Virus record (IMG/VR): IMGVR_UViG_3300046009_000662
Span: 1 to 28,362 of that record
Strand: one strand, 5' to 3'
Source: a virus
DNA length: 28,362 bases
Shown here piece after piece: positions 6,120-28,362 of this stretch (positions are counted from its first letter, which is position 1; each line of letters opens with the position of its first letter). Below the pieces are notes generated by a model. It had not been told where the DNA came from. It worked only from the letters and a program-made list of their open reading frames with translations, and ran no database searches. A program made the translations under genes and the position numbers.

Positions 6120-6527
6120 GTGGCACAGCAAGGTGGATATAGAAAACCGAATAACCCAGCCCCAGTATCAGGCCCTGGCTCTCTTAGTCAACGTACTGAC
6201 GGGGGTCCAACACAACCTGCAACCTACATTCCAGGATTACCATATGGACAAGGACAACAAACCTACGACAATCAAGTAGCAGCACCTATGGCTGGTAATC
6301 CAATTCCACAAATGGAAATGCCAACACCATTGTTAGCCCCTACTGCACGTCCTAATGAACCTATTACATCTGGAGTTGATATAGGTGCTGGACCTGGCTC
6401 AGAAGCAAAGCCGACATTGCCTAATCCTTCATATACAATCCAAGAAGTAATTAGAAACTTAATCCCATACGACCCATCTGGTGATGCAGAATTAATATAT
6501 AGAAGTTTACTTGACGAAGGGTACTAA
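6120..6527 (+). CDS. Proline/glycine-rich virion-associated protein, unknown function
   Basis: The 135-residue protein is rich in P, G, Q and T up to about residue 105 (for example RKPNNPAPVSGPGSLSQRTD, 8-27), suggesting an extended or disordered chain, and ends with a short helical segment (PSYTIQEVIRNLIPYDPSGD, 103-122). I associate this N-terminal pattern with conserved hypothetical proteins beside the protease and large virion protein in environmental phages. The start is GTG at 6120, four bases after a strong GGAGG at 6111-6115. Its TAA shares a base with the next ATG. A linker or protease substrate role is only a guess. Confidence 0.8.
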   Translation: MAQQGGYRKPNNPAPVSGPGSLSQRTDGGPTQPATYIPGLPYGQGQQTYDNQVAAPMAGNPIPQMEMPTPLLAPTARPNEPITSGVDIGAGPGSEAKPTLPNPSYTIQEVIRNLIPYDPSGDAELIYRSLLDEGY

Positions 6528-9500
6528 TGGCATATCGTCTTAATCCAATAGTAGCCAAGGCTAGTCCCAACCTTTATGCCGCTGCTAAAGCCGCAAATAT
6601 TCCTATGGAACAGGGAACCCAATTAGAACAATTTAGTTGGACTGTTGAAAAAAATAAAAAATTAAATCAATTACCTATTGATGCTGCCCGTAAAGAATTT
6701 GAGGGTTTAGACCCTAGTGCTCAAGAAAAACTAAAGTTTTTATTTCCAGAATCAGATTATCAATTAGCAGAACCAGGTGCTAGTAACTATCTTACTGGTG
6801 CAATAAAAACTGGATTTACAGTTCTTAAGAGTCCATTAGTTTTATTGTTTAAGGCTGCTGGTGTTTTCAATAGAGCAATTAATACACCCTACCTACTAGC
6901 CCGTCAGGCTGCACAAGGTGAAGGTTTATTTACTAAAGAATCATTTAGTGATGCTTGGGATGGTCGCAGAGTTTATGACCAAGGAGCATTAACAAATGCT
7001 ATGGATTATTTTGGTGTTGAAAAAGTAGAGATAGCAAAAGGTTTAATTGCTGGTAAAAAACCAGGAGAGATTATTGCTAGCGCTGGTGGTGCAATAAATC
7101 CAAAAATGCTAGATGCTTTAGAAGAAGCGTATAATAATCCAGAAGCATTTCAGCAAGTAATGGATGGCGTTAAGAATGCACAAGTATCTCCAGGTAGAGA
7201 TATTAGCCGTGCTACTGGAATACAAGGCATCTCTGGTCCTATAGATTTTATATATCAAATTGCAGTTGACCCACTAACTTATGTTACTGGTGGTGTAAGC
7301 GCTGCTATTAAAGGCAGAGTACTTGGTATGGCTAATCAAACTGGTACTCAAATGCGTAAGACTATTGAGCAGTTTGGTGTTGCTGGAGTAAGAGATATAT
7401 TCCGAGACAACAAAGATGTAGTTAAGTTATGGGATGACCAACTAGGTCCTGAAATTAAAAGACTTAATGCCGAGCCAGATGAGATTGCTAAAATTGGAAT
7501 ACGTAATGATATTAAAAGACGTTTTCCTGGTTATAACAACGATGAGGCCATTGACTTCCTAGAAAGAAACAATGTTGTCAATGCTAGTCGTGCTCAAACA
7601 GTTTTTACAAATGTTGATAATCTATCTATGTTTATGGCAGGTAGAGTTGAGGGTGCTCAGTTCTTCCGCAATGGTATAGCCACTGCAAGAAACCAACGCA
7701 GGTTAACTACTGGTGCTCAAAAAGCACTAAGTAATTTCCTAAATCCTGCATCTGGTACTACTAAAGAAATTGCTAAGTCAGTTGATGAAATATCAAAGTC
7801 ACTTGTTAAAGCAGGTTCTACCCGTGAGGCTGAGTTAATAGGTCCAGAAATAATAGACTTTACAAAATTTACCCGTAAGAATCTTAAAGAAAAAGTTTCT
7901 CTTCTTTTAGCACGTACTCCACAAAATAAAGAGATTAAACTTAATGTTACTGACAGTAACCAGTCTATTAAAACTGCAAACGTCTTTAGAGATACAGCAC
8001 GTCAGGTATTGCCAAAGGATTTGTCAGAGGCTTTAACTGTTAAGTTTATTAACTCTACTGCAAATGACCAAGTTGCTATGCTTCGTAGCCTTGATGTTGC
8101 AATTATGCAACGTTTGGGAATTGAAGGCACAGAAAAGGGTAGAGATTACATAAGAAAAACCCTTGAAGAAAAATATGGTTCTTCAGTTGGTGTAGCAGTT
8201 ACTGAAAAATTAGATGTTCCTATAGGTTTTGAAAATGTTGTATCCAAGGCTGGTGTTAAACTAGATGGCGATGCAGTAAAATTTGACTCAGAAGGTATTA
8301 TCCACCCATTTCAAGAGCGTGGTGCAATATCTACCCTTGATTATCAACAACTAGCACAGTATTCCTATGAAGCAAACAGAGGAAAATTAGTTTCCGCTAT
8401 GTTTGGTGGCGCTACAAGTAGCGCATTAGCAACTGGAATTGTTAATTTCTGGTCTTTGTTTACACTTTTCCCACGTTTAGGTATACGAAGCAGCATTGAT
8501 GAAGGTTTTATTTACTATCTGACAGCACCTGCTAAGGATTTATTCCAATACTTAGACCGTAAAGGTCATAGAATGGGCAGAATTGCTGCTGCATACTCTG
8601 GTTCTAGGAGTGGTGAACAGTTAAGAGTTAAGATTTCTAGAGCAATGGGTAGAAAAACCCCTGCTGATATGTACGATAAAGATGCAAGATTGGCAATGAT
8701 TAGCGATTACGCTAATACAGTTGGCAAAGAGCCAGAAGAACTAACATCTTTAGAGCGTAAGTTAGCCCAAGCCCAATATATTACTGAGGCAATGAACCGT
8801 AAAGGTTTTCTTGGTAAACTAAATGATAATGAAGTTCAGTTCTTAATACAAGGATTAACTTTAAACTCACAATATCTAACTGCAGGTACCAGGTCTATTG
8901 CTGCAGGAGCAAGCCTTGTTGGACGTCAGTCAACTGAGGTTGCTGAAGAGTTAGTTAATATGAGTAACCTTGATATAGCCGTAGGTCTTTTCCCAGATTT
9001 GGCTAAAGGTAAAACTGGTCAAAGAATAGATACAGAGAAGTTGGCTTCACTTCAAGCCCTTGCAGGTCGTGGTGTTTCTTTAGTTCATTTTGAAAATTTT
9101 GTGCAACGCTTCTATGGTAATACTAGAAAGATTCAAGGTATTAGTGAGAAGTATAAGTTTAATCCAGTTGCTGCGTTTGTATTAAGCAAAGGCTTAAGAA
9201 CAGAGCGTGACTTTGCTGGTGCTAAAACTTACCTATTAGAAAACGTAGGTCTAAGAAAAAATACAGACCTACTTGGTAGATTTGATGAGGATGTAATACC
9301 TACATTAGGTGTAAAAATTACACACTCAGTTAAAGACCCAGAAGCACTAAAAGACTTTTTAAATATGACAGCCCATACTAGCGCTTTGCGTTTGCAAGGA
9401 CTAGATGATATGGAAATTGCTGAGGTTTTAATTGACCGTGTTCTACTAGATATGCGTCAGACTTTCCACGGTAGTGCATCAGGGTTCAATGAAGCATTGT

Positions 9501-11650
9501 TTAATAAGTTAAAATCTACCTACGATGATATAGTAAAAGAAGAATTAGAGTCTGGAAACAGAGTATCCAATAAGGCTCAAAAGGCAGCACAAAGAATAAC
9601 ATTTGAAGAGTTTGAAGAGTTAACTAAAGGCTATCAACCTAAAGGTAAATTGTTTACTACCCTTGAAGGTCCAGGTATTTCTGATATGGAAAGTGCCTAT
9701 GCCAAACTAGGCAACGGTATGATGGAATTAATGGATAACCAAGTAACAGGTATCCTGCGTCAACCAGTAGTAATGATTAAGTACTTAGATGTACGCAAAA
9801 ATTATGCTGCATTAGAAAAACAAATGGCTACAAAACTTTACTTAGACAAACTAAAAGAGTATGAAGACGAAGGTAAAGTTCTAGGAGATAAAGTTAAATC
9901 AGCAATCCTAGAGGATACAAAACAGCATGCTCAGAAACTTATAACAGAAGTATCTGTTCAAGAAGCAGCAGATTCTGTATTAAAGTTTGTTGATAACCCT
10001 AATGTTAGAACTAACTTTGCTGTAGCAGTCCGTAATACTGGTCGCTACTACCGTGCCACTGAGGATTTTTGGCGCAGAATTTACCGTCTAAAAGATATAG
10101 GACCTAGAGTTCTATACCGTATGCGATTAATGCACCTTGGTTTAGATGCTGCAGGTGGCGTATATAAAGATAACAATGGCGAACCATACATTATGATGCC
10201 AACAGACAACGTTATATTTGGCGTTGTAGATGCCACAGTTCGTGCATTAGGACCAGGTGAGCAGAGTTTCAAACAACCAAAGTTTAATGAGTTTACATTT
10301 AAACTAACCTTGGCTAACCCTTCATTCAGCCCAGATGCTGGTATGCCCACGCTATCTGGACCTATTGGTGCACTAAGCGTGCTAACTATGAAGTCTTTAT
10401 TGGGTAAAGTACCACCAGCCAAAGAGTTATCAGAAGAGTTAGATAACTACGCCCTTGGTGATATAGGCGATGGTATGACAGTAATGCGTGCTTTAGTTCC
10501 TTCATCATTGCAAAAACTATATTCAATAGTACCTAAAGATGAAAAGGATAGGCAAGAATCTACTGCTGCTATGCAGGCTATTGCTTACAATCAAGCCTTT
10601 AGTACTGATGAGCAGATGGCTAAGTACTTAGACCCTAATGCATCAGCAGAGGATAAATACAACTACTTAAAGCAAATTAGAATATCTGCACATAACGTAG
10701 TTGTTATGCGTAATATTATTGGTTTATTCTCACCAATTGCACCATCAGTTCAAGAGAGTATTAACGTTCCAGACTACCTCAAAGAGGTGGGTATAACAGG
10801 ACTACGTCCAGAGTTTTATGACCTAGTTAATGCAGTAACTCAGAAATATAAGGGTGATGTTCAAGACCCATATGAGTTAGCAGTTGCTACATTTGTAGGT
10901 AAGAATCCAGGTAAGTTAATCTATACAGTTGCTCGTAATGAGAAGCAAACTAACGTAGTTATTCAGAAGACTAAGGCTGTTAAGTCTTGGGCTATACAGA
11001 ATGAAAGCAATGTTAAAAAGTATGGTGAGGCAGCCTGGATATTTGCACCACATACAGGAGAGTTTGATGCCCCTACCTATGCATATCTAGAGGCAGCAGG
11101 ACTACTTCAGGATAAGTCTTTAGAGAGATACTACCTAGATGTTTTGGTGGCTAAGGACAAGCAAGCCTATTACGATATTGCTAAAGAAGAAAAAGAGTTC
11201 TTAAGGTCAACACCTAGCATTAGTGCTCGTAGAGCAAAGATTGCTGAAGCAACAAGACAGCGTGCTTTACTTAAGGTATCTAATCCATTACTTGAGGCAG
11301 CCCTTGTGGCTGGTGGTAATGAGGTAGCAACAGAACTAAATATGTTGTCTAACCTTGAAGAGATGATTAAAGATTCATCTATTAATATGCCAGTTGGAAC
11401 ACGTCAAAGACTAGCAATGGTTACATCAAGAGTCCGTCAGTTTGTATCTTTGGCTAATGATGCTTCACTTCGTGAGGCAGAAAACTTTGCTGATATTAAA
11501 AGAAACTTCAGAAATGAAGTAGAGAACTTAATTGCAAGTTTAAGTACTGGAGATGCTGTCTTGACAGAAGCAAGCAGAGCAATATTTAAATCAATTCTTG
11601 GTTACTACTCACGCGATACCTATACCGCTAAAGCATATAAAGGATACTAA
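6527..11650 (+). CDS. Giant virion protein (1707 aa), probable internal/ejection protein
   Basis: This is the longest gene in the window, 1707 residues, mostly predicted alpha-helical with no enzyme motif I can identify. Apolar stretches occur at about 90-115 (TGFTVLKSPLVLLFKAAGVF), 235-262 (with AVDPLTYVTGG) and 630-670 (IVNFWSLFTLFPRLGIRS). They are compatible with proteins that insert into a membrane on DNA ejection. Length and composition resemble T7 gp16-type internal virion proteins; a tape-measure protein is the main alternative, but the place between portal and capsid and the lack of tail-tube genes argue against it. It is coupled to both neighbours by TAATG overlaps, suggesting a co-translated set with the next two genes. 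Confidence 0.75.
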   Translation: MAYRLNPIVAKASPNLYAAAKAANIPMEQGTQLEQFSWTVEKNKKLNQLPIDAARKEFEGLDPSAQEKLKFLFPESDYQLAEPGASNYLTGAIKTGFTVLKSPLVLLFKAAGVFNRAINTPYLLARQAAQGEGLFTKESFSDAWDGRRVYDQGALTNAMDYFGVEKVEIAKGLIAGKKPGEIIASAGGAINPKMLDALEEAYNNPEAFQQVMDGVKNAQVSPGRDISRATGIQGISGPIDFIYQIAVDPLTYVTGGVSAAIKGRVLGMANQTGTQMRKTIEQFGVAGVRDIFRDNKDVVKLWDDQLGPEIKRLNAEPDEIAKIGIRNDIKRRFPGYNNDEAIDFLERNNVVNASRAQTVFTNVDNLSMFMAGRVEGAQFFRNGIATARNQRRLTTGAQKALSNFLNPASGTTKEIAKSVDEISKSLVKAGSTREAELIGPEIIDFTKFTRKNLKEKVSLLLARTPQNKEIKLNVTDSNQSIKTANVFRDTARQVLPKDLSEALTVKFINSTANDQVAMLRSLDVAIMQRLGIEGTEKGRDYIRKTLEEKYGSSVGVAVTEKLDVPIGFENVVSKAGVKLDGDAVKFDSEGIIHPFQERGAISTLDYQQLAQYSYEANRGKLVSAMFGGATSSALATGIVNFWSLFTLFPRLGIRSSIDEGFIYYLTAPAKDLFQYLDRKGHRMGRIAAAYSGSRSGEQLRVKISRAMGRKTPADMYDKDARLAMISDYANTVGKEPEELTSLERKLAQAQYITEAMNRKGFLGKLNDNEVQFLIQGLTLNSQYLTAGTRSIAAGASLVGRQSTEVAEELVNMSNLDIAVGLFPDLAKGKTGQRIDTEKLASLQALAGRGVSLVHFENFVQRFYGNTRKIQGISEKYKFNPVAAFVLSKGLRTERDFAGAKTYLLENVGLRKNTDLLGRFDEDVIPTLGVKITHSVKDPEALKDFLNMTAHTSALRLQGLDDMEIAEVLIDRVLLDMRQTFHGSASGFNEALFNKLKSTYDDIVKEELESGNRVSNKAQKAAQRITFEEFEELTKGYQPKGKLFTTLEGPGISDMESAYAKLGNGMMELMDNQVTGILRQPVVMIKYLDVRKNYAALEKQMATKLYLDKLKEYEDEGKVLGDKVKSAILEDTKQHAQKLITEVSVQEAADSVLKFVDNPNVRTNFAVAVRNTGRYYRATEDFWRRIYRLKDIGPRVLYRMRLMHLGLDAAGGVYKDNNGEPYIMMPTDNVIFGVVDATVRALGPGEQSFKQPKFNEFTFKLTLANPSFSPDAGMPTLSGPIGALSVLTMKSLLGKVPPAKELSEELDNYALGDIGDGMTVMRALVPSSLQKLYSIVPKDEKDRQESTAAMQAIAYNQAFSTDEQMAKYLDPNASAEDKYNYLKQIRISAHNVVVMRNIIGLFSPIAPSVQESINVPDYLKEVGITGLRPEFYDLVNAVTQKYKGDVQDPYELAVATFVGKNPGKLIYTVARNEKQTNVVIQKTKAVKSWAIQNESNVKKYGEAAWIFAPHTGEFDAPTYAYLEAAGLLQDKSLERYYLDVLVAKDKQAYYDIAKEEKEFLRSTPSISARRAKIAEATRQRALLKVSNPLLEAALVAGGNEVATELNMLSNLEEMIKDSSINMPVGTRQRLAMVTSRVRQFVSLANDASLREAENFADIKRNFRNEVENLIASLSTGDAVLTEASRAIFKSILGYYSRDTYTAKAYKGY

Positions 11651-19884: not shown

Positions 19885-22335
19885 ATGACAACACGCAAAT
19901 ACTCATCACGCTCACAGCAAACAACACTTGCTTCAGCGTTAACTTCCTCTGGTACTTCAGCAACTGTTGTATCAGGAACCTCATTACTAGGTGGTGCCAC
20001 AATATCTGCTGGCCAAACCTTTACGGTGGTGATAGACCCAGATACAGCGCTTGAAGAAATTGTAGATGTAACGGCGGTCTCCACTAACACTCTTACTATT
20101 GTTCGTGGTATTGATGGCTCATCTGGCGTAGCCCACTCTGCTGGTGCTGTAGTGCGGCATATGGCAATTGGTAGAGATTATCGTGAAGCCAATACACACA
20201 TTGAAGCATCTTCAGGAGTACACGGTTTAACTGGTTCCGTAGTGGGAACTTCAGATACCCAGACTCTTACTAACAAAACAATTAGTGCAGCCGATAACAC
20301 ACTTACTGGTGTGGCTACTTTAACTGGCACTCAGACACTAACTAACAAGACTTTAACTAGCCCAACCATTACTGGTACTGGTGCTATTGCAGGTACCTTT
20401 ACAGGTAACCTTACAGGTAACGTAACTGGAACTGTATCAGGTAATGCAGGAACCGCTACTACATTAGCAACCGCTAGAGACTTCCAATTAACTGGAGATG
20501 TAGAAGCATCAGCCGTATCTTTTAATGGCTCTAGTTCAGTTAACTTAGTAACCTCTATTGCTACTGGTTCTATTGTTAACGCAGACATCAATGCATCCGC
20601 TGCAATTGATAAGACTAAGATTTCAGGAACTGCTATTACTGCTGGTGATACTGGCACAGTAACTAGCACAATGATTGCTGATGGCACAATTGTTAACGCT
20701 GATGTATCAGCAACTGCTGCTATTGCTAAGACCAAGTTAGACCTTGGTGGAACTATTACATCTGCTGACTTGGTAGATGGTACTATCGTTAATGCTGATA
20801 TTAATGCCTCTGCTGCTATTGCTTTATCTAAGTTAGCCGTAGACCCATTAGCCCGTGCTAACCATACTGGTTCACAAACAGCCTCAACTATTTCAGATTT
20901 TGATACACAGGTAAGAACATCTCGCCTTAATCAAATGGCAGCACCTAATGCTGCTGTATCTATGAATAGCCAAAAGATTACTAACTTAGCAAGTCCTGTA
21001 GATAATGGAGATGCAGTAAGTCTTGGATATCTTGCTGGTCAAAAAGGTGTAGCAAATGGTATTGCCGAACTTGATGGTAATGGATTAGTTCCTACTCATC
21101 ACCTTCCAGCCCTTGCTATATCTGAAACATCTGTAGTTAATTCACAGGCTAATATGCTTGCACTAACTGCTCAGGTTGGTGACGTTGCAGTTCGTACAGA
21201 TGTTAATAAATCATTTATTCTTACAGCAACTCCTGCTTCTACATTGGGTAACTGGCAAGAGTTATTAACTCCAACAGATGCGGTTCTTTCTGTTGATGGC
21301 AGTACAGGTGCAGTAAGCCTTTCAGGTACATATCTAAATAGAACTACAGGTCAGTTGCTTGGCAACCTAGATGCTAACACACATAAGGTTACTAACCTAG
21401 GTACGCCTACAAGCAACGCAGATGCTGCTACAAAGGCATATGTAGATACTGTCGCTGGTTCTGCTACTGCTGCTGCAGCCTCCGCTGCTGCCGCTGCTAC
21501 AACCTATGACAACTTTGATGATAGATACCTAGGTGCTAAGTCAACTGCTCCATCTGTAGATAATGATGGTAATACACTTCTCGTTGGTGCTCTATACTGG
21601 AACTCAGTATCTAATACTATGTTTGCTTGGAATGGTTCTGCTTGGGGTTCAATATCCTCAACTGCAGAAATCTTCCGTTATCGTTTTACTGCAGCAGGTG
21701 GAGAGACATCTGAGTCAGGACTTGACGATAATGGTTTGACACTTTCTTATCTTCCTGGCAAGGAACAAGTATATCTAAATGGTGTACTTCTTGCTCGTAC
21801 TTCTGATTACACTGCTACAAACGGTACAACTATTACTGGTCTTGCAGCACTTGCTGCTGGAGATATTCTTGAGGTTATTACCTTCACAGCCTTTGACTTG
21901 GCAACAGCCATTCCAAATACTGTTTTTGATGCAAAGGGTGATTTAATTGTAGGTACTGCAGCCGATACTATTGGCAAACTAACTGTTGGTGCCAATGAAA
22001 CACGTCTTGTTGCTGACTCTGCACAGGCTACGGGACTTAAATATGTGGCTGACACCACTAACTATGCTATTGCAGCAAAAGGAGATTTATTGGCTGGTAC
22101 TGCCGCCGATACTGTTGCTCCATTAACTGTAGGTACTGATGGATATTACTTAAAAACTAACTCAGCAACCGCAACTGGTCTTGAGTGGGCAGCAGTATCT
22201 CAGTACTCATTGCCTTCTCAAACAGGTAACTCAGGTAAATATTTAACAACAAATGGCACTTCAGAATCCTGGGCAGCAGTAAATGTAAGTGCAATAGACG
22301 ATAACTATATACTCGCTCTTATGGGCGCAATCTAA
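19885..22335 (+). CDS. Tail fibre protein with internal repeats
   Basis: 816 residues, rich in T, S, A, N and G. Residues 14-95 are a small beta domain similar to that in the preceding protein (EEIVDVTAVSTNTLTIVRGI, then SSGVAHSAG). Repeats follow: TQTLTNKT twice (about 125-160), IVNADxxAxAAI three times (starting near 230, 269 and 301), and AKGDLxxGTAADT twice (near 683 and 731). NKVTNLGTPTSNADAATKAY-type stretches near 500 and the run of alanines before YDNFDDRYLGAKST are typical of trimeric phage fibre shafts. It attaches to the tail and contacts the host surface; the receptor is unknown. Translation start ATG at 19885, weak ribosome site. Confidence 0.85.
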   Translation: MTTRKYSSRSQQTTLASALTSSGTSATVVSGTSLLGGATISAGQTFTVVIDPDTALEEIVDVTAVSTNTLTIVRGIDGSSGVAHSAGAVVRHMAIGRDYREANTHIEASSGVHGLTGSVVGTSDTQTLTNKTISAADNTLTGVATLTGTQTLTNKTLTSPTITGTGAIAGTFTGNLTGNVTGTVSGNAGTATTLATARDFQLTGDVEASAVSFNGSSSVNLVTSIATGSIVNADINASAAIDKTKISGTAITAGDTGTVTSTMIADGTIVNADVSATAAIAKTKLDLGGTITSADLVDGTIVNADINASAAIALSKLAVDPLARANHTGSQTASTISDFDTQVRTSRLNQMAAPNAAVSMNSQKITNLASPVDNGDAVSLGYLAGQKGVANGIAELDGNGLVPTHHLPALAISETSVVNSQANMLALTAQVGDVAVRTDVNKSFILTATPASTLGNWQELLTPTDAVLSVDGSTGAVSLSGTYLNRTTGQLLGNLDANTHKVTNLGTPTSNADAATKAYVDTVAGSATAAAASAAAAATTYDNFDDRYLGAKSTAPSVDNDGNTLLVGALYWNSVSNTMFAWNGSAWGSISSTAEIFRYRFTAAGGETSESGLDDNGLTLSYLPGKEQVYLNGVLLARTSDYTATNGTTITGLAALAAGDILEVITFTAFDLATAIPNTVFDAKGDLIVGTAADTIGKLTVGANETRLVADSAQATGLKYVADTTNYAIAAKGDLLAGTAADTVAPLTVGTDGYYLKTNSATATGLEWAAVSQYSLPSQTGNSGKYLTTNGTSESWAAVNVSAIDDNYILALMGAI
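20569..20835 (+). repeat. Three diverged copies of a fibre shaft repeat
   Basis: Copies begin at 20572, 20689 and 20785 and encode IVNADINASAAIDKTK, IVNADVSATAAIAKTK and IVNADINASAAIALSK. Nucleotide identity has decayed mainly at third positions, so these are old protein repeats, not recent duplications. Spacings of 117 and 96 bases keep the frame. Confidence 0.85.
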
Positions 22336-22350
22336 GGAAGGTAGTAACTA

Positions 22351-22653
22351 ATGGCTACAACAAGTAAGGTGCTCTTTCGTGGAGCAGCATCAACATCAAG
22401 CACAACTCTATACACAACACCTTCAGCAACTACAACTGTAGTAACTGATATTGTTATTGCTAATACAGCAACAGCATCTGCTACTTATGAACTATTACTC
22501 AATGATGTAGTTCTAGCAAAAACTGTAACTGTCGGAGCCAACGACTCAACTGTTTTACAAATAAAACAACCACTAAGCGCTACTCACACTATTAAAGGTT
22601 TAGCGTCTGCCACTACTGTTAACTTTCACATCAGTGGCGTGGAGATTGCATAA
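22351..22653 (+). CDS. Small beta-rich tail protein
   Basis: The 100-residue product is almost all predicted beta strand (TTVVTDIVIANTATASATYE, YELLLNDVVLAKTVTVGAND, TVNFHISGVEIA), suggesting a single beta-sandwich of about eight strands. It resembles small fibre-accessory or tail-tip proteins often found beside fibre genes. AAGGAAGG lies upstream and its TAA overlaps the next ATG, coupling it to the adhesin. No catalytic residues or signal peptide are visible. Confidence 0.75.
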   Translation: MATTSKVLFRGAASTSSTTLYTTPSATTTVVTDIVIANTATASATYELLLNDVVLAKTVTVGANDSTVLQIKQPLSATHTIKGLASATTVNFHISGVEIA

Positions 22654-23606
22654 TGACAGCAGCATATAGATTATCTGATAGTTCCATAAGAAATAAAACT
22701 ATTTATAACAGTATGTTGGCTGGTAATTTTAGGAACAATTCAAGCAAAGCAAATGGTGGAAATGAAATTATATCTAGTGGAGGTTTCTGGTATCACGTAT
22801 TTAGAAGTTCTGGAACATTTGTTCCTAAAGAAGCAATTACTGCTAACATCCTTGTAATTGCAGGTGGTGGTGCTGGAGGTGGAACTTGGGGTGCTGGTGG
22901 CGGTGCGGGTGGTTTAATACACACAGCAAGTCAATCTTTAACTTCAGGAACTATTTATACTGCAGTTGTTGGAGCAGGCGGGGCTAAGGGAAGTCAGACT
23001 CGAAATAATGGAGTTGCTTCTAATTTAATTGGTGGTGTATTAACATTAACTGAAGCAATTGGTGGCGGTCACGGCGGAATTAGAACTTCACCTTACACAG
23101 GTGGCAATGGTGCTTCTGGTGGTGGTGGTACTGGCGCCTATGGTGTTTCAACAAATAATGGTGGTAGCGCAACTGCAAGTCAAGGTTCTGCTGGCGGAAG
23201 TGCTGTATGGTATCAAAACGGTATGGGTGGCGGTGGTGGATTTAGCGGTGCTGGTGGCAATGCTAGCACAAGTACCCACCAAAGCGGTAACGGTGGTGTT
23301 GGTACAACTACTTACTCTTCTTGGGGTTCTGCAACTAGCACTGGACAAAACAGTGGTGGAACTTTTTATTATTGTGGTGGTGGCGGTGGTGGCGCTAGCG
23401 TTGCAACAGGTGGCACTACTGCTGGTACTGGTGGTCTTGGCGGAGGCGGTGCAGGTGGTGGTGGTGGTGGTAACTATCCTTCTATAGGTATTGATGGAAC
23501 ACCAAATTCAGGCGGAGGCGGTGGTGGTGGCGCTCAAGGAAACATAATTGATACACTTGGAGGTAATGGCGGTTCAGGTGTCATTATTATTCGATATGCA
23601 GTTTAA
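22653..23606 (+). CDS. Glycine-rich tail adhesin
   Basis: 317 residues. The N-terminal part (about 40-70) has GGFWYHVFRSSGTFVPKEAI and ILVIAGGGAGGG, a pattern of a small beta domain leading into glycine-rich segments. From about residue 68 to 305 there are many glycine runs separated by variable loops (for example NGGSATASQG, GNASTSTHQSGNGGVG). It ends with a strand GGSGVIIIRYAV that is typical of these proteins. Similar glycine-rich adhesins fold as polyglycine-II bundles whose loops bind receptors (T-even S16 gp38 is a described case); that fold is inferred here. It is probably carried at the tip of the fibre encoded upstream. Confidence 0.82.
   Translation: MTAAYRLSDSSIRNKTIYNSMLAGNFRNNSSKANGGNEIISSGGFWYHVFRSSGTFVPKEAITANILVIAGGGAGGGTWGAGGGAGGLIHTASQSLTSGTIYTAVVGAGGAKGSQTRNNGVASNLIGGVLTLTEAIGGGHGGIRTSPYTGGNGASGGGGTGAYGVSTNNGGSATASQGSAGGSAVWYQNGMGGGGGFSGAGGNASTSTHQSGNGGVGTTTYSSWGSATSTGQNSGGTFYYCGGGGGGASVATGGTTAGTGGLGGGGAGGGGGGNYPSIGIDGTPNSGGGGGGGAQGNIIDTLGGNGGSGVIIIRYAV
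23454..23471 (+). repeat. In-frame (GGT)6 tract in the adhesin
   Basis: Six uninterrupted GGT codons encode glycine. The region 23380-23540 holds further GGT/GGC/GGA runs. Repeat-length slippage here would add or remove glycines without changing frame. Confidence 0.85.
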
Positions 23607-23628
23607 TAATAAAAATAAGGAGTAATAA

Positions 23629-23973
23629 ATGGCTCATTATGCTAAAGTAGAAAACGGAATCGTTACGCAAGTAATTGTTGCTGATAATAAAGAGTGGTGC
23701 GAAAACAATTTAGGTGGCACTTGGGTTCAAACCTCTTATAATACTATAGGTGGAGTCCATTTAAATAATGGTTCTCCGCTTTATAAAAATTATGCAGGCA
23801 TTGGATATACTTTTGATGGCACTGGTTTTGCTGCTCCACAACCATATCCTTCTTGGACATTAAATGCAGATACTTACTTTTGGGAAGCACCCACAACTAT
23901 GCCTAAAGTAACAGGCAAAGAATACTACTGGTCAGAGGATGACCTATCTTGGAGGGAAATAACCAATGACTAA
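23629..23973 (+). CDS. Small conserved virion/tail-associated protein
   Basis: The 114-residue protein starts MAHYAKVENGIVTQVIVADN and contains WVQTSYNTIGGVHLNNGS, KNYAGIGYTFDGTGFAAPQP and YPSWTLNADTYFWEAPTTMP. I recognise this arrangement from many cyanophage and other aquatic phage structural regions, where it is a conserved hypothetical protein; no function is known to me. The ribosome site AAGGAG is six bases before ATG. Its 3' end overlaps the next gene by eight bases and contains that gene's ribosome site GGAGGG (23951-23956). Confidence 0.82.
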   Translation: MAHYAKVENGIVTQVIVADNKEWCENNLGGTWVQTSYNTIGGVHLNNGSPLYKNYAGIGYTFDGTGFAAPQPYPSWTLNADTYFWEAPTTMPKVTGKEYYWSEDDLSWREITND

Positions 23974-24721
23974 AGCAAGAGATATAGCGAGTGCAGCACC
24001 TGCACCCTCTACCGTAGATGCAACTGAGTTAGGGTATGTAGATGGTGTTACCTCTGCTATCCAGACACAGTTAGATGCAAAGACTGCAAAGTCTACCCTT
24101 ACTACTACAGGTGATATTTACTATGCATCTGCTGCTAATACCCCTGCTAGATTAGGAATTGGTAGCACAGGAAATGTACTCACTGTGGCATCAGGTATCC
24201 CTAGTTGGAGCGCCCCATCAAGCGGTGCTTTAACCCTAATCACAACTCAATCTTTTAGTGCTTCTAGTTCTGTATTAGTAAATGATTGTTTTAGCAGCAC
24301 TTACACAAATTACAAAGTAATCGTTAATTACACTGGTTCTGCAAGCGCAGCAACTAGACTTCGCTTTAGGGTTAGCGGTTCATCTAATAGCAATAATAGT
24401 TACGATGGAAACTGTGTTTTTATTAACAACACAACAATAGTAAATGAACAAAATGGTGCTAATACTTCTTATGTATTTAATTTTTGTAATGTAACTTCAA
24501 CACCCACCGCTTTCGTAAACATTGAAATAGGTTCACCTAATGAAAGCAAACATACTGCTTATTATTCAAATGGAAATATGAGTAAAAGTGGTGCAGTAAA
24601 TTCATCACCAATGATAACTGGTGGTTCATTTTTAGAAACCACTGTATTTACTGGCTTTGAATTATTTCCAGCAAGCGGAAACATTACAGGTTCAGTTCAA
24701 GTCTATGGATATGGAAAATAA
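23966..24721 (+). CDS. Second tail fibre/tip protein
   Basis: 251 residues in two parts. The N-terminal 85 residues (TKARDIASAAPAPSTVDATE, LGYVDGVTSAIQTQLDAKTA, TGDIYYASAANTPARLGIGS) are a fibre-attachment style region that shares its TxGD and GNVLTV themes with the 816-residue fibre. The C-terminal part is a beta-rich domain with many S, T and N residues (FRVSGSSNSNNSYDGN, NESKHTAYYSNGNMSKSG), likely a receptor-binding or trimerising tip. The ATG at 23966 has GGAGGG nine bases upstream. Stop is three bases before the next start. Confidence 0.75.
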   Translation: MTKARDIASAAPAPSTVDATELGYVDGVTSAIQTQLDAKTAKSTLTTTGDIYYASAANTPARLGIGSTGNVLTVASGIPSWSAPSSGALTLITTQSFSASSSVLVNDCFSSTYTNYKVIVNYTGSASAATRLRFRVSGSSNSNNSYDGNCVFINNTTIVNEQNGANTSYVFNFCNVTSTPTAFVNIEIGSPNESKHTAYYSNGNMSKSGAVNSSPMITGGSFLETTVFTGFELFPASGNITGSVQVYGYGK

Positions 24722-24724
24722 AAA

Positions 24725-24949
24725 ATGAGCAAAGTTACTGAAATTAATGCAATAGAAAATGAAGTGGTTGAAAGAGATTACACTGAAGCAGAATTAGCCC
24801 AGCGAGAAATTGACCGCCTATCTGATGAGGCAAGAGAAGCCGAATTGTTGGCTGCTGAGGAAGCAAAAGCAACAGCCAAAGAAGCAGCACAGGCTAAACT
24901 TGCAGCCCTTGGCTTAACTGTTGAGGATTTACAGGCTCTAGGTCTTTAG
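24725..24949 (+). CDS. Small acidic coiled-coil protein after the fibre genes
   Basis: The 74-residue product is a single long predicted helix rich in E and A (AELAQREIDRLSDEAREAEL, LLAAEEAKATAKEAAQAKLA) ending LGLTVEDLQALGL. Similar short helical proteins follow fibre genes in other phages and may help folding or attachment of the fibre, but the sequence gives no direct proof. It is the last forward gene before the HNH insertion and has a poor ribosome site, relying on three-base proximity to the previous stop. Confidence 0.75.
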   Translation: MSKVTEINAIENEVVERDYTEAELAQREIDRLSDEAREAELLAAEEAKATAKEAAQAKLAALGLTVEDLQALGL

Positions 24950-24988
24950 CATAATCTTGAGGGATTGTTCTACAAATATTAATAACTA

Positions 24989-25417
24989 TTAAGGAGCACT
25001 GTGGCTGGTCGTGATTGACTGCCACTTGTTTAAGTAGTTAATGGCTGACTGGAGATACTCAGGGTTATCCTTGAAGTATCCCAGTCCAGCATTACATCTA
25101 ATACAAAGTAATCCTCTAGGTTTATTAGTTATATGACAGTGGTCGGCAGACCAATCTCTATTGGTATATTTAGTAGTGCCACATATGCCACATTTATTTT
25201 CTTGAAGTTTTAAATATTCGTTGTACCTATCAATATCCCAACCAGGAACTCTGCGTTTATTTTGAGCACGAATCATTTCTTTATTATTCAAACGGTATTG
25301 TTTCTTTTTGATAGAAGCACAGTCTTTACATCTGGATTCAATACGAATTTTTCTATTATTTCTAATATAAAATTTAGAATGTGGTAGTTCAAGTTTACAA
25401 TCAATACAAATTTTCAT
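24989..25417 (-). CDS. HNH homing endonuclease, endonuclease VII type
   Basis: The only convincing reverse-strand gene. The 142 residues carry an N-terminal zinc knuckle (C4-x2-C7 and C30-x2-C33), a basic linker, then C76-x2-C79, the D92-H93-C94-H95 motif, C105-x2-C108 and N109, a structural zinc plus HNH (beta-beta-alpha metal) site as in recombination endonuclease VII relatives. Such enzymes nick or cut DNA and spread their own gene into unoccupied alleles. The conserved fold ends near YLNKWQ; the tail SITTSHSAP is the complement of the target gene's original ribosome site and start. ATG at 25415-25417 has no ribosome site but lies six bases after a perfect extended -10, so a leaderless message is predicted. 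Confidence 0.92.
   Translation of the reverse strand: MKICIDCKLELPHSKFYIRNNRKIRIESRCKDCASIKKKQYRLNNKEMIRAQNKRRVPGWDIDRYNEYLKLQENKCGICGTTKYTNRDWSADHCHITNKPRGLLCIRCNAGLGYFKDNPEYLQSAINYLNKWQSITTSHSAP
25001..25018 (+). pseudogene. Orphaned original start of the large tail gene
   Basis: AAGGAG (24991-24996), four bases of spacing, then GTG GCT GGT CGT GAT TGA encodes M-A-G-R-D and stops. The tail gene on the far side of the HNH insertion continues A-G-R-D-I-T-E, so this is best read as the original 5' end, cut off by the insertion. The ribosome site still looks functional and would make a five-residue peptide. Confidence 0.7.
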
Positions 25418-25423
25418 AGTTAA

Positions 25424-25432
25424 ATTATACCA
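25424..25432 (-). promoter_or_regulatory. Extended -10 promoter of the HNH gene
   Basis: On the reverse strand TGG-TATAAT is a perfect extended -10 (TGnTATAAT). Six bases (TTAACT) separate it from the HNH ATG, so transcription should begin at or within a base of the start codon. A 17-base spacer puts CGCTAT at -35, which does not match TTGACA; extended -10 promoters can act without it. Confidence 0.6.
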
Positions 25433-25435
25433 TAT

Positions 25436-25441
25436 GGAGGT
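25436..25441 (+). promoter_or_regulatory. New ribosome site before the rebuilt tail-gene start
   Basis: GGAGGT lies five bases before ATA at 25447, the position where ATG of a rebuilt M-A-G-R-D would be. Strength and spacing indicate that translation from 25447 is intended even though the codon is not a standard start. Confidence 0.6.
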
Positions 25442-25446
25442 GTATC

Positions 25447-27672
25447 ATAGCGGGCAGAGACATAACCGAAGGTGATGATAATGTATGGCCCTTATCGGGC
25501 GATGGATTACCTATTGCTCGTGGTACCGCAGACATTGGTATTGTTTCTACAAGTACATACTGGCAGAATACATCTGACTCATATGATGTAGCAGTTGGTG
25601 GACAACCATTCTTCTATGCCATAAATGACCAACGTCCATACATTAGACAGACTGCACCTTACAAGAAGGACCAGTTTGATAATGGAGCAGAACCAGGTGA
25701 GCAATCACTTACTGGCTGGTGGATTAGAAGTCAGTCATCTTTCCACAGTGGCGAAGGCATTAAGTTCTATGACCCATCTGCTGGCGAGACAGTTGCCCAT
25801 AGATTTACAGATAGCAAAGGTGTAGATGTCTGGACTAAGGGCGAGGTAACTCTACTTAAAGATGTTGCTACTGGACACGTAACATCATATCCAGTTGAAT
25901 CTAATGGTCGTGCATTTCAACAACTACGTTCTATCAAATGGGGTACAACTAACGGCGTACTACTACACGATGGATATGATGTAGATAAAATTGATACTGC
26001 TGGAGCAGAGACTCACTTTATTGACTTTAATGCTGGTTCAGATGACAAGGTATATGCAATCTGTGATGATGGTACTTCAGCCTATTGGGTAACCAATGAT
26101 ACTGGTCCATCTGGAAAACTAGAAGTAAACTCAAAGCCTTTGGTTGGTGATGCATCTACATCTAAGACTACTTTGTTTACCGCTGCTGGTATTACAGTAA
26201 CCAATGCAACTATGGAATATGTTAAAGACCGTATTGTTATGGCTGCTAATAATAAGATATATGAGTTCTCTACATCAGCATCATCATTACCTGCTGCTGT
26301 GTATACACACTCTGATTCAGATATTATTTTTACCTCTATTACAGCATCTGGTCCTGCTATTTATGTTGCTGGCTTTAGTGGTATCCAATCATTTATATTT
26401 AAGTTTACCCTTAACACATCAGGTGTTATGCCAACCCTTACCTCAGCAATTACTGCAGCAGAGATGCCAGCAGGTGAAAAAGTTTACAAGATTTATTACT
26501 ACTTAGGCTATATGATGATAGGGACAAACAAGGGAATCCGTGCAGCAGTTGTCTCTGACCAAGATGGCTCCATTAACTATGGTCCACTAATTGTGGAAAC
26601 CACTCAGCCTTGCTATGACTTTGCTGCACGAGACAGATTCGTCTGGTGTGCAACTGGCGTAGATGGTGAGCCAGGAGTTATCCGCATTGACCTTGGCAAT
26701 GAGGTAGAAACCCTACGTTTTGCTTATGCAAATGATTTATATTATTCAGGTGTATCTGGTGTAGATACTACATCCTGTGCATTCTTAGGAGAAACAGATA
26801 GGCTTGCATTCTGCACAGAAGCAGTAGACCAAAAAGCAGTAACTAATAAAGAACGCACTGGAACTACTGCAACTATTACATCTAATGCACACGGCTATGT
26901 GGCTGGAGATAGTATATATGTTATTGGTGTAGATGCAGCACTAGATGGCAACTTTACTATTACCTCAGTAACTACAAATACAATTTCCTACACTACTGCT
27001 ACATCTGGAACTATTGCATCTACTGCAGTAACTACTGGATTTGTTGGCAAGCCTGGTTATTCATACTTAGAAGCAGCATCTACATTGCTACCTACTGGTT
27101 ATATAACTACAGGTTATATCCGATACGGTACATTAGAGCCTAAGAACTTTAAGCGTTTACTTGCTCGTGGTGACTTTACCTTCGGTTCATTAGTACTTGA
27201 AACTGTAGATAAAGATGGTGTTGAGTATGACCACATTACCTACGAAGCAGGAGTAACTGCAGTTGAAGTTGGTACTAATAATCCTGACACAGCGCAGGAG
27301 TATGTAGCCTATAAGTTTGTTCTTAACCGTGATGCTACAACTACTAGCCAAGGTCCAGTATTTAAGGGCTATCAAGCAAAGGCTACTATTGCTACACCAC
27401 GTCAAAGAACTATGCAGTTTCCTGTTTATTGTTTTGATATTGAAACAGATAGATACAATGTGGTATCTGGTTATGAAGGTAAGGCACTAGCACGACTACA
27501 ACTACTAGAAGGAGTTGAAGAGAATGGCGACGTTGTTACCTGGCAAGACCTTACTACTGGCGAAAGTCGTCAGGTAGTTATTGAGCAAGTCTCATTTACA
27601 CGTATGACTCCACCTGATAAAAGGTTTGATGGATTCGGCGGCGTAATTGAGATAACTATTAGAACGGTATAA
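25447..27672 (+). CDS. Large tail protein (nozzle/tail-tip candidate) with non-standard start
   Basis: The frame is open from 25420 to the TAA at 27670-27672. From 25447 it gives about 741 residues beginning (start)-AGRDITEGDDNVWPLSG. The part before 26140 is clearly coding: WQNTSDSYDVAVGGQPFFYA, LTGWWIRSQSSF, GTTNGVLLHDGYDVD. No ATG, GTG or TTG lies in frame until TTG at 26140, which would discard about 230 residues, so the real start is ATA 25447, a mutated ATG, or another mechanism. The body has repeated beta-strand blades (KIYEFSTSASS, GPAIYVAGFSGIQSFIFKFT), like a beta-propeller. A central insert (NAHGYVAGDSIYVIG) resembles small domains of other tail proteins. A T7 gp12-like nozzle or other minor tail protein is inferred from fold impression and position only. 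Confidence 0.7.
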   Translation: MAGRDITEGDDNVWPLSGDGLPIARGTADIGIVSTSTYWQNTSDSYDVAVGGQPFFYAINDQRPYIRQTAPYKKDQFDNGAEPGEQSLTGWWIRSQSSFHSGEGIKFYDPSAGETVAHRFTDSKGVDVWTKGEVTLLKDVATGHVTSYPVESNGRAFQQLRSIKWGTTNGVLLHDGYDVDKIDTAGAETHFIDFNAGSDDKVYAICDDGTSAYWVTNDTGPSGKLEVNSKPLVGDASTSKTTLFTAAGITVTNATMEYVKDRIVMAANNKIYEFSTSASSLPAAVYTHSDSDIIFTSITASGPAIYVAGFSGIQSFIFKFTLNTSGVMPTLTSAITAAEMPAGEKVYKIYYYLGYMMIGTNKGIRAAVVSDQDGSINYGPLIVETTQPCYDFAARDRFVWCATGVDGEPGVIRIDLGNEVETLRFAYANDLYYSGVSGVDTTSCAFLGETDRLAFCTEAVDQKAVTNKERTGTTATITSNAHGYVAGDSIYVIGVDAALDGNFTITSVTTNTISYTTATSGTIASTAVTTGFVGKPGYSYLEAASTLLPTGYITTGYIRYGTLEPKNFKRLLARGDFTFGSLVLETVDKDGVEYDHITYEAGVTAVEVGTNNPDTAQEYVAYKFVLNRDATTTSQGPVFKGYQAKATIATPRQRTMQFPVYCFDIETDRYNVVSGYEGKALARLQLLEGVEENGDVVTWQDLTTGESRQVVIEQVSFTRMTPPDKRFDGFGGVIEITIRTV

Positions 27673-27676
27673 TACT

Positions 27677-27880
27677 ATGACACCTATTGATTGGGCTACA
27701 TTTGCAGTAGCCGTAACCACCTTGCTTGGTACATTGTCAATTGTAATAAGGCACTTGGTTAAACATTATCTATCCGAACTTCGCCCCAATGGAGGCTCAA
27801 GTTTAAAAGATAAGGTCAATCAATTAGACGATAAAGTAGAGTTCTTAACAGAGTTAATCATACAATCACTAAAGAAATAG
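27677..27880 (+). CDS. Holin-like single-span membrane protein
   Basis: 67 residues: a short N-terminus (MTPIDW), one apolar span at about 7-28 (ATFAVAVTTLLGTLSIVIRH), the motif HYLSELRPNGGSS (30-42) and a C-terminal coiled coil (LKDKVNQLDDKVEFLTELII). This arrangement is common in small phage membrane proteins annotated as holins in actinobacterial and other environmental phages. Holins permeabilise the inner membrane to release endolysin; no endolysin is seen in the window. It starts four bases after the previous stop and lacks a clear ribosome site. A membrane anchor for another role is possible. Confidence 0.65.
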   Translation: MTPIDWATFAVAVTTLLGTLSIVIRHLVKHYLSELRPNGGSSLKDKVNQLDDKVEFLTELIIQSLKK

Positions 27881-27884
27881 GTAT

Positions 27885-28362
27885 ATGAAGGCGGACGAAT
27901 TTCCTAAATGGTTCTACGATAATAATACAGTCAATGACTTTGAAGTAGGATTAGCAGAGTTCAAAGGTAAAAAGAATCTTAAGTTCTTACAGATAGGTGT
28001 CTTTACTGGCAATGCATCTGCTTGGCTACTAAAGAATATTCTTACAGACCCATTATCATTACTTGTAGATGTAGACCCTTGGTGTGGCAATCTGCCCCAC
28101 GAGTCAGTATATGACTGGGCAGATATACAAGAGGCTTATCAAGAACAGATAAAGCCGTATGGCAAAAGAGTTCAATCATTCAAAGCATTTAGTGGTGACT
28201 GGTTAAAGAAACACCGTGAAGGTGGCTTTGACTTTATCTATATTGATGGCGACCATCTACCAGAATCAGTTACTTTAGATGCAGACTTATCTTGGGACTT
28301 GCTTAAGTCTGGTGGTATTATGGCATTTGATGATTACGAATGGAATCACCCAGATGGATTTC
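27885..28362 (+). CDS. Class I SAM-dependent methyltransferase, 3' end beyond window
   Basis: ATG at 27885, four bases after the previous stop, opens a frame that runs off the window (159 residues visible). Motif I is LQIGVFTGNASAWLL (35-49), the acidic strand end is LLVDVDPW (59-66), and a later GGFDFIYIDGDHLPES (113-128) and LKSGGIMAFDDY (140-151) match the FDFIYIDGDH...GGxxxxDDY pattern of the Methyltransf_24-like group. These act on small molecules, sugars or capping groups; the substrate is not readable from the sequence. With the glycosyltransferase upstream, modification of a surface glycan is one possibility. Ribosome site is poor (AAATAGGT). Confidence 0.82.
   Translation, partial: MKADEFPKWFYDNNTVNDFEVGLAEFKGKKNLKFLQIGVFTGNASAWLLKNILTDPLSLLVDVDPWCGNLPHESVYDWADIQEAYQEQIKPYGKRVQSFKAFSGDWLKKHREGGFDFIYIDGDHLPESVTLDADLSWDLLKSGGIMAFDDYEWNHPDGF

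What the first reader, a model, noticed from the sequence alone, without database searches (positions are those of the whole stretch)
25420..26142. About 230 hidden N-terminal residues and an ATA in place of the start codon
The frame used by the tail gene is open for 720 bases upstream of the first standard start (TTG 26140) and is clearly coding. The only well-placed ribosome site (GGAGGT, 25436-25441) faces ATA at 25447, exactly where M would precede A-G-R-D. Either AUA initiates, an ATG was lost by mutation, the sequence has an error, or expression needs another route such as re-initiation or RNA joining.
Basis: seen in the sequence. Interest (0 to 1): 0.72.

Follow-up and report, generated by a model that had tools for sequence, protein, structure and literature searches.

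The report
Phage tail gene starting at AUA
A mobile DNA-cutting gene has pushed into the very beginning of a tail gene in a virus of freshwater bacteria, and the displaced tail gene now most likely starts at a rare start signal (AUA) backed by an unusually strong ribosome-binding site, a pairing that recurs in many related viruses.

Summary
The tail frame is open from 25420 and coding; no ATG/GTG/TTG occurs in frame before TTG 26140; GGAGGTG (25436-25442) faces ATA 25447.

Relatives explain it. Uninterrupted phages read AAGGAG-N4-GTG-GCT-GGT-CGT-GAT. In the window that original start survives at 24991-25015, closed by TGA. It is followed by an antisense HNH/endonuclease-VII gene (24989-25417) and then a second, synonymously recoded copy: GGAGGTG-TATC-ATA-GCG-GGC-AGA-GAC. 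So a homing-endonuclease-like gene displaced the start.

ATA is neither an error nor a lost start. Four IMG/VR scans left the start codon free. With GGAGGTG the codon was TTG 30, ATC 15, ATA 4 (49/49). With AAGGAG it was GTG 125/125. ATC also occurs in loci with no HNH gene and no upstream start copy, which excludes RNA joining or ribosome bypassing as the general route. In most of these loci an in-frame stop lies four codons before the codon. The frame is under purifying selection, including within a clade whose members all carry ATC.

Best reading: AUA (elsewhere AUC) initiates, driven by an extended Shine-Dalgarno, as reported for S. aureus AUA/AUU starts. Translation itself was not measured.

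The parts
24725..24949 (+). upstream small gene (74 aa) that in uninterrupted relatives lies directly before the tail gene
   Evidence: the ORF listing; a similar Ala/Glu-rich small gene precedes the tail gene in L038, L044, L052
24991..24996 (+). original Shine-Dalgarno AAGGAG of the tail gene
   Evidence: identical in uninterrupted relatives
25001..25018 (+). remnant of the original start: GTG GCT GGT CGT GAT TGA (M-A-G-R-D-stop)
   Evidence: relatives read GTG GCT GGT CGT GAT ATA ACC without interruption
24989..25417 (-). HNH / recombination endonuclease VII gene (142 aa), inserted antisense into the 5' end of the tail gene; homing-endonuclease-like
   Evidence: Pfam PF02945 E 4.7e-19, phrog_2633 E 1.4e-32; relatives at the same site in L010, L034, L040, L044, L082, L091, L119, L090 group
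25424..25429 (-). TATAAT -10-like box ending 6 nt before the HNH ATG (leaderless promoter, inferred)
   Evidence: a box of this type at about the same distance in the other HNH loci
25436..25442 (+). extended Shine-Dalgarno GGAGGTG, duplex with anti-SD -13.2 kcal/mol
   Evidence: invariant spacing of 4 nt in ATA/ATC and TTG relatives
25447..25449 (+). ATA initiation codon (inferred)
   Evidence: aligned with ATC, ATA or TTG in 49 of 49 loci with the same context
25450..25461 (+). recoded second copy of the first codons: GCG GGC AGA GAC (A-G-R-D)
   Evidence: synonymous to GCT GGT CGT GAT
25450..27672 (+). body of the tail gene (740 aa after the initiator, phrog_11667, predicted beta-propeller, weakly like P22 gp10 / Sf6 hub proteins) with stop

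Best explanation
The window carries a tail (hub or nozzle-like) gene of a 'Ca. Nanopelagicales'-type phage whose first codons were invaded by a free-standing HNH (endonuclease VII-like) gene. The original GTG start was cut off after five codons. The gene continues from a second, recoded copy of its 5' end that brings its own translation signal: an extended Shine-Dalgarno GGAGGUG, 4 nt, then AUA. Shown: the insertion, the duplicated and recoded 5' end, the absence of any usual start, the recurrence of AUA/AUC/UUG in exactly this context, and selection on the frame. Inferred: that the 30S subunit initiates at AUA with fMet-tRNA, the strong SD making up for the weak codon; and that the HNH protein is an active homing endonuclease whose target covers the unrecoded 5' end.
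For: Uninterrupted relatives read AAGGAGCACT-GTG-GCTGGTCGTGATATAACC, and the window holds this left half at 24991-25015 followed by TGA and the antisense HNH gene. Scans with the start codon left as NNN: GGAGGTG + AGR context gives TTG 23, ATC 11, ATA 4; GGAGGTG + CGN gives TTG 7, ATC 4; AAGGAG + CGT gives GTG 119/119; AAGGAG + AGR gives GTG 6/6. The start codon therefore goes with SD strength, not with the recoding. SD:anti-SD mean -13.2 kcal/mol for ATA/ATC/TTG and -7.7 for GTG, spacing 4 nt throughout the first group. All ATA/ATC loci have an in-frame stop upstream (4-9 codons, 27-35 in the L090 group) with no ATG/GTG/TTG close before the codon; L096 alone has a TTG, 30 codons up. ORFs of ATA/ATC loci are as long as the others (660-749 codons). 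Within the all-ATC L090 clade, L090 vs L113 has 86.5/489 synonymous against 37.5/1590 nonsynonymous differences. On the tail-gene tree ATA/ATC needs 11 changes over 14 rows, so it is no single defective lineage. S. aureus infC, ccpN and citZ (AUA) and cvfC1 (AUU) are reported to initiate at such codons, with extended SDs at infC, ccpN and cvfC1 and about 10-30% of AUG activity in the reporter tests (PMC13009471).
Against: No protein or ribosome-profiling data. Low initiation from AUA/AUC (up to about 1% of AUG in E. coli per Hecht et al. as cited in PMC12864459) might not suffice for a virion protein. The module may spread as a unit, so the SD/start association is not 174 independent events. 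The SD motif was part of the scan patterns.
Confidence: 0.86

Rival explanations
1. The upstream copy (GTG GCT GGT CGT GAT) is used and the insert is removed from the mRNA (intron) or jumped by the ribosome (as in T4 gene 60).
For: The 5' copy with its SD is intact in the window, L034, L044 and L082 and ends in TGA directly after GAT in the window, L044 and L082, as a take-off site would.
Against: No Rfam match at all in 24700-26300 even at E 5. The second copy keeps A-G-R-D, SD and spacing, which joining would make useless. L038, L102, L109, L110, L252, L256 and the L090 group have ATC without any upstream copy.
Confidence: 0.04
2. The gene is damaged in the window phage (start lost), or the ATA is a sequencing or assembly error; any product starts internally at TTG 26140.
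For: ATA is not in the usual start set; near GTG relatives exist.
Against: ATA or ATC at the same position in about 19 contigs of different samples with full-length frames; purifying selection; TTG 26140 lies inside the predicted propeller and is not a shared start (first in-frame DTG varies from codon 5 to 231).
Confidence: 0.05
3. A ribosome starting at an out-of-frame ATG/GTG overlapping the SD (ATGGAGGTG, 25434) shifts frame into the tail gene.
For: ATG overlaps the SD in the window and in several relatives.
Against: L102 (TTTACGGAGGTG) and L038 (TTGAAAGAGGTG) have no such ATG yet have ATC and full frames; no SD lies before that ATG in the window.
Confidence: 0.02
4. AUA/AUC was chosen to escape cleavage by the phage's own HNH enzyme (the start codon is part of the target) rather than to tune translation. 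This concerns why AUA is there, not whether it initiates, so it is compatible with the best explanation.
For: ATA/ATC is strongly associated with HNH in the first sample: 11 of 12 distinct HNH loci have it; A-G-R-D is recoded too.
Against: Eight ATC loci have no closely related HNH next to the site (L038, L102, L109, L110, L252, L256, L258, L260, though L260 has only 37 nt of upstream sequence); L044 has HNH and GTG; the start codon follows the SD and not the recoding.
Confidence: 0.15

Closest known systems
Non-AUG (AUA/AUU) starts with extended Shine-Dalgarno in Staphylococcus aureus (infC, ccpN, cvfC1, citZ; PMC13009471)
   Same: AUA as start; extended SD reported for infC, ccpN and cvfC1; conserved among relatives
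   Different: Cellular genes, with ribosome profiling and reporters; here a phage tail gene with AUC as well, no expression data, and the SD/start pair varies between relatives as a module
Free-standing HNH homing endonucleases of T-even phages (mobA-E; PMC2988022)
   Same: Free-standing HNH gene next to or within a conserved phage gene; mobA (gene 60) and Aeh1 mobE (nrdA) insertions split genes
   Different: Here the insert sits at codons 5-6 in antisense, and the split leaves one full-length protein by re-creating the 5' end in recoded form with a new, weak start; cleavage not tested
T4 gene 60 bypassing / mobA cassette
   Same: Endonuclease insertion close to a coding gap, stop codon right after the take-off-like codon
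   Different: No bypass needed: loci without the upstream copy still have the same start region
E. coli pcnB AUU start (Binns and Masters 2002, as cited in PMC13009471) and infC AUU (own knowledge)
   Same: Weak near-AUG start on a functional gene
   Different: AUU, low-level or autoregulated genes; no switching with SD strength between relatives known to me

Membership tests
Genes using a near-cognate (AUA/AUC) start | no standard start codon available in frame for the conserved N-terminus | tested here: met
   in-frame stop before the codon and no ATG/GTG/TTG close before it; conserved residues begin directly after it
Genes using a near-cognate (AUA/AUC) start | Shine-Dalgarno at proper distance | tested here: met
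   GGAGGTG, 4 nt, -13.2 kcal/mol
Genes using a near-cognate (AUA/AUC) start | codon aligned with accepted starts in relatives | tested here: met
   aligned with TTG in 30 loci of the same context
Genes using a near-cognate (AUA/AUC) start | initiation with fMet at that codon shown by peptide, profiling or reporter | not testable with these tools
   needs experiment
Homing endonuclease gene (free-standing HNH) | HNH/EndoVII domain | tested here: met
   PF02945 E 4.7e-19
Homing endonuclease gene (free-standing HNH) | sporadic presence at one site in relatives, empty sites intact | tested here: met
   12 distinct loci with, many without; HNH label needs 8 changes on the tree
Homing endonuclease gene (free-standing HNH) | cuts the empty site and spares its own | not testable with these tools
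   recoding is consistent, cleavage not assayed
Group I / II intron | catalytic RNA core | tested here: not met
   no Rfam match up to E 5
Translational bypass (gene 60 type) | upstream take-off part required | tested here: not met
   several ATC loci have no upstream part

The most novel reading that the evidence does not exclude
The 5' end of this phage tail gene exists as exchangeable translation modules in which start codon and Shine-Dalgarno strength are locked together (AAGGAG with GTG; GGAGGTG with TTG, ATC or ATA; never GGAGGTG with ATG or GTG), spread partly by homing of an HNH gene, so that AUA/AUC starts are kept by selection to hold tail-protein output at a set level.
Probability: 0.45. 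Interest if true: 0.72.

Novelty: new variant of a known kind. Interest (0 to 1): 0.58.

Why it matters
Gene finders run with ATG/GTG/TTG alone would drop the first 230 residues of this protein or call a wrong start. More generally it offers a natural series of about 170 sequenced alleles of one gene in which the start codon changes with the strength of the ribosome-binding site, including AUC and AUA as likely working starts of a virion gene, and it shows how a gene can survive insertion of a homing-endonuclease-like gene into its start region by re-creating the start downstream.

Tried and rejected
Intron: Rfam scans at gathering and at E 5 found nothing. Bypass or splicing: loci without the upstream copy. 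Frameshift from the ATG overlapping the SD: absent in L102 and L038. Sequence error: recurrence; the 100% identical contig L001 covers 21263-28361 of the window but may come from the same sample, so it is weak support by itself. Start-codon change as pure escape from HNH: not supported by the SD-versus-recoding comparison. mRNA hairpin at the start: no z-score beyond chance in six sequences. The structure model is poor in the first 137 residues (pLDDT under 50), so nothing is said about the fold of the N-terminus. In the other genes of these loci, GGAGGTG with 4-nt spacing goes with ATG (5 cases), so the link with weak starts belongs to this gene, not to GGAGGTG as such. Literature searches found no paper on AUC/AUA starts in a phage tail gene, but the library lacks most subscription papers.

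Full report
Observation. The tail frame follows a TAG at 25417-25419 and runs open from 25420 to 27669; its first in-frame ATG/GTG/TTG is TTG 26140. GGAGGTG at 25436-25442 is 4 nt from ATA 25447-25449. The 230 codons between ATA and TTG 26140 align with relatives over their whole length, start with invariant A-x-R-D-x-T-x-G and evolve with dS 0.27, dN 0.062 against the nearest GTG relative.

What lies just upstream. Uninterrupted relatives from IMG/VR read TTAAGGAGCACT-GTG-GCT-GGT-CGT-GAT-ATA-ACC-GAA. The window has TTAAGGAGCACT-GTG-GCT-GGT-CGT-GAT at 24989-25015, then TGA. Between this and the ATA lies a 142-aa gene on the minus strand (24989-25417) with an endonuclease VII/HNH domain (PF02945, E 4.7e-19; phrog_2633, E 1.4e-32). 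After it the first codons appear again, in other synonymous codons: ATA-GCG-GGC-AGA-GAC, then ATA-ACC-GAA as in the ancestor. The gene has thus been invaded at codon 5/6 by a homing-endonuclease-like gene and goes on from a recoded second copy of its start. Relatives of this HNH sit at the same place in L010, L034, L040, L044, L082, L091, L119 and the L090 group. In L242 an HNH relative sits in sense orientation at the same site, its own N-terminus fused to the first codons M-A-T-R-D-I of the tail gene, and the tail gene restarts with ATG-GCT-ACA-AGG-GAT.

Is ATA the start? To get an unbiased spectrum, IMG/VR was scanned with the start codon left as NNN. Context GAGGTGYNYY-NNN-GCNGGNAGRGAY gave TTG 23, ATC 11, ATA 4. 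The same SD with CGN in place of AGR gave TTG 7, ATC 4. AAGGAG with AGR gave GTG 6 of 6. So the position is always occupied by a codon that can initiate, and the kind of codon follows the SD, not the recoding: 49 of 49 weak starts with GGAGGTG, 125 of 125 GTG with AAGGAG. Fisher's p is 2e-44, but the rows are related, so this is a description and not a test. Predicted SD:anti-SD pairing is -13.2 kcal/mol in the ATA/ATC/TTG loci and -7.7 in the GTG loci.

Other routes. In most ATA/ATC loci an in-frame stop lies four to nine codons upstream, often formed by TAA/TAG just before TGG-AGG-TG; in the L090 group it lies 27-35 codons upstream. No ATG/GTG/TTG lies in frame between stop and codon except one TTG, 30 codons up, in L096. 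L038, L102, L109, L110, L252 and L256 have ATC without HNH and without an upstream start copy, and the L090 group has HNH but no upstream copy, which excludes splicing or bypassing as the general route. No catalytic RNA was found. An out-of-frame ATG that overlaps the SD in the window is missing in L102 and L038, which rules out a frameshift route there. The L090 clade, in which all four members have ATC, shows purifying selection over the gene (L090 vs L113: 86.5/489 synonymous, 37.5/1590 nonsynonymous). On a tree of codons 13-442 the ATA/ATC state needs 11 changes over its 14 rows: it recurs, by transfer of the 5' module or by mutation, rather than marking one decayed lineage.

How it most likely works. 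The extended SD holds the 30S subunit long enough for fMet-tRNA to accept AUA (AUC in relatives). Precedent: S. aureus infC, ccpN and citZ (AUA) and cvfC1 (AUU); extended SDs are reported for infC, ccpN and cvfC1, and ccpN, citZ and cvfC1 reporters give about 10% and, for ccpN, up to 30% of AUG (PMC13009471). In E. coli AUA is weak, up to about 1% of AUG per Hecht et al. as cited in PMC12864459. Translation was not measured here; this step is inference. That GGAGGTG never goes with ATG or GTG in this gene, while it does go with ATG in other genes of these loci (5 cases), suggests that output is being held down or constant; this too is inference.

Host and gene. The closest named phages are OX376640/1 (62-63% identity), which carry the strain names of Planktophila phages LanE43AprE7 and F5 isolated on 'Ca. 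Nanopelagicales' (PMC10202952); the record read (E7) has GTG with AAGGAG. More distant are Streptomyces phages at about 35%. The protein falls in phrog_11667 (unknown function); the model (mean pLDDT 59) shows a beta-propeller from about residue 139 to 430, with weak fold matches to Sf6 and P22 tail hub proteins among many propellers. TTG 26140, at residue 231, would cut this propeller.

Verdict. Observation confirmed; AUA initiation is the best reading (0.86 for the whole explanation). The insertion of an HNH gene explains the anatomy. AUA/AUC starts and homing-endonuclease insertions are both known kinds; their combination, and the co-variation of start codon with SD among relatives of one phage gene, is the new part.

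Noticed in passing
window 25424-25429 (minus strand) and the same place in L010, L034, L040, L044, L119, L082, L091: The antisense HNH gene has a -10 box (TATAAT) ending 6-7 nt before its ATG, so it is probably transcribed as a leaderless mRNA, away from the tail gene; the L090 group has TTGACA-17 nt-CATAAT in the same role.
   Followed up: partly
L242:2970-3430: An HNH relative in sense orientation whose N-terminus is made of the tail gene's own first codons (M-A-T-R-D-I-E...), followed by a tail gene restarting at ATG in recoded form: a second kind of insertion at the same site.
   Followed up: partly
L040:4525 and the upstream copy next to L241: The upstream remnant reads GTG GTC AGT CGT GAT TGA, altered from GTG GCT GGT; the opposite strand also encodes the C-terminus of the HNH protein, so it may now evolve as part of that gene.
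   Followed up: no
loci with the GGAGGTG context (TTG 30, ATC 15, ATA 4): ATG and GTG never occur with GGAGGTG at this gene although it is paired with ATG in other genes of the same loci.
   Followed up: partly
L010:108-145 and L038:4269-4310: The recoded tract reaches further into the gene in some loci (to about codon 10-12), as expected of co-conversion tracts of different length.
   Followed up: no
window 6527-11650: A 1707-aa open reading frame with no PHROGs match at E 0.001 in the structural gene block.
   Followed up: no
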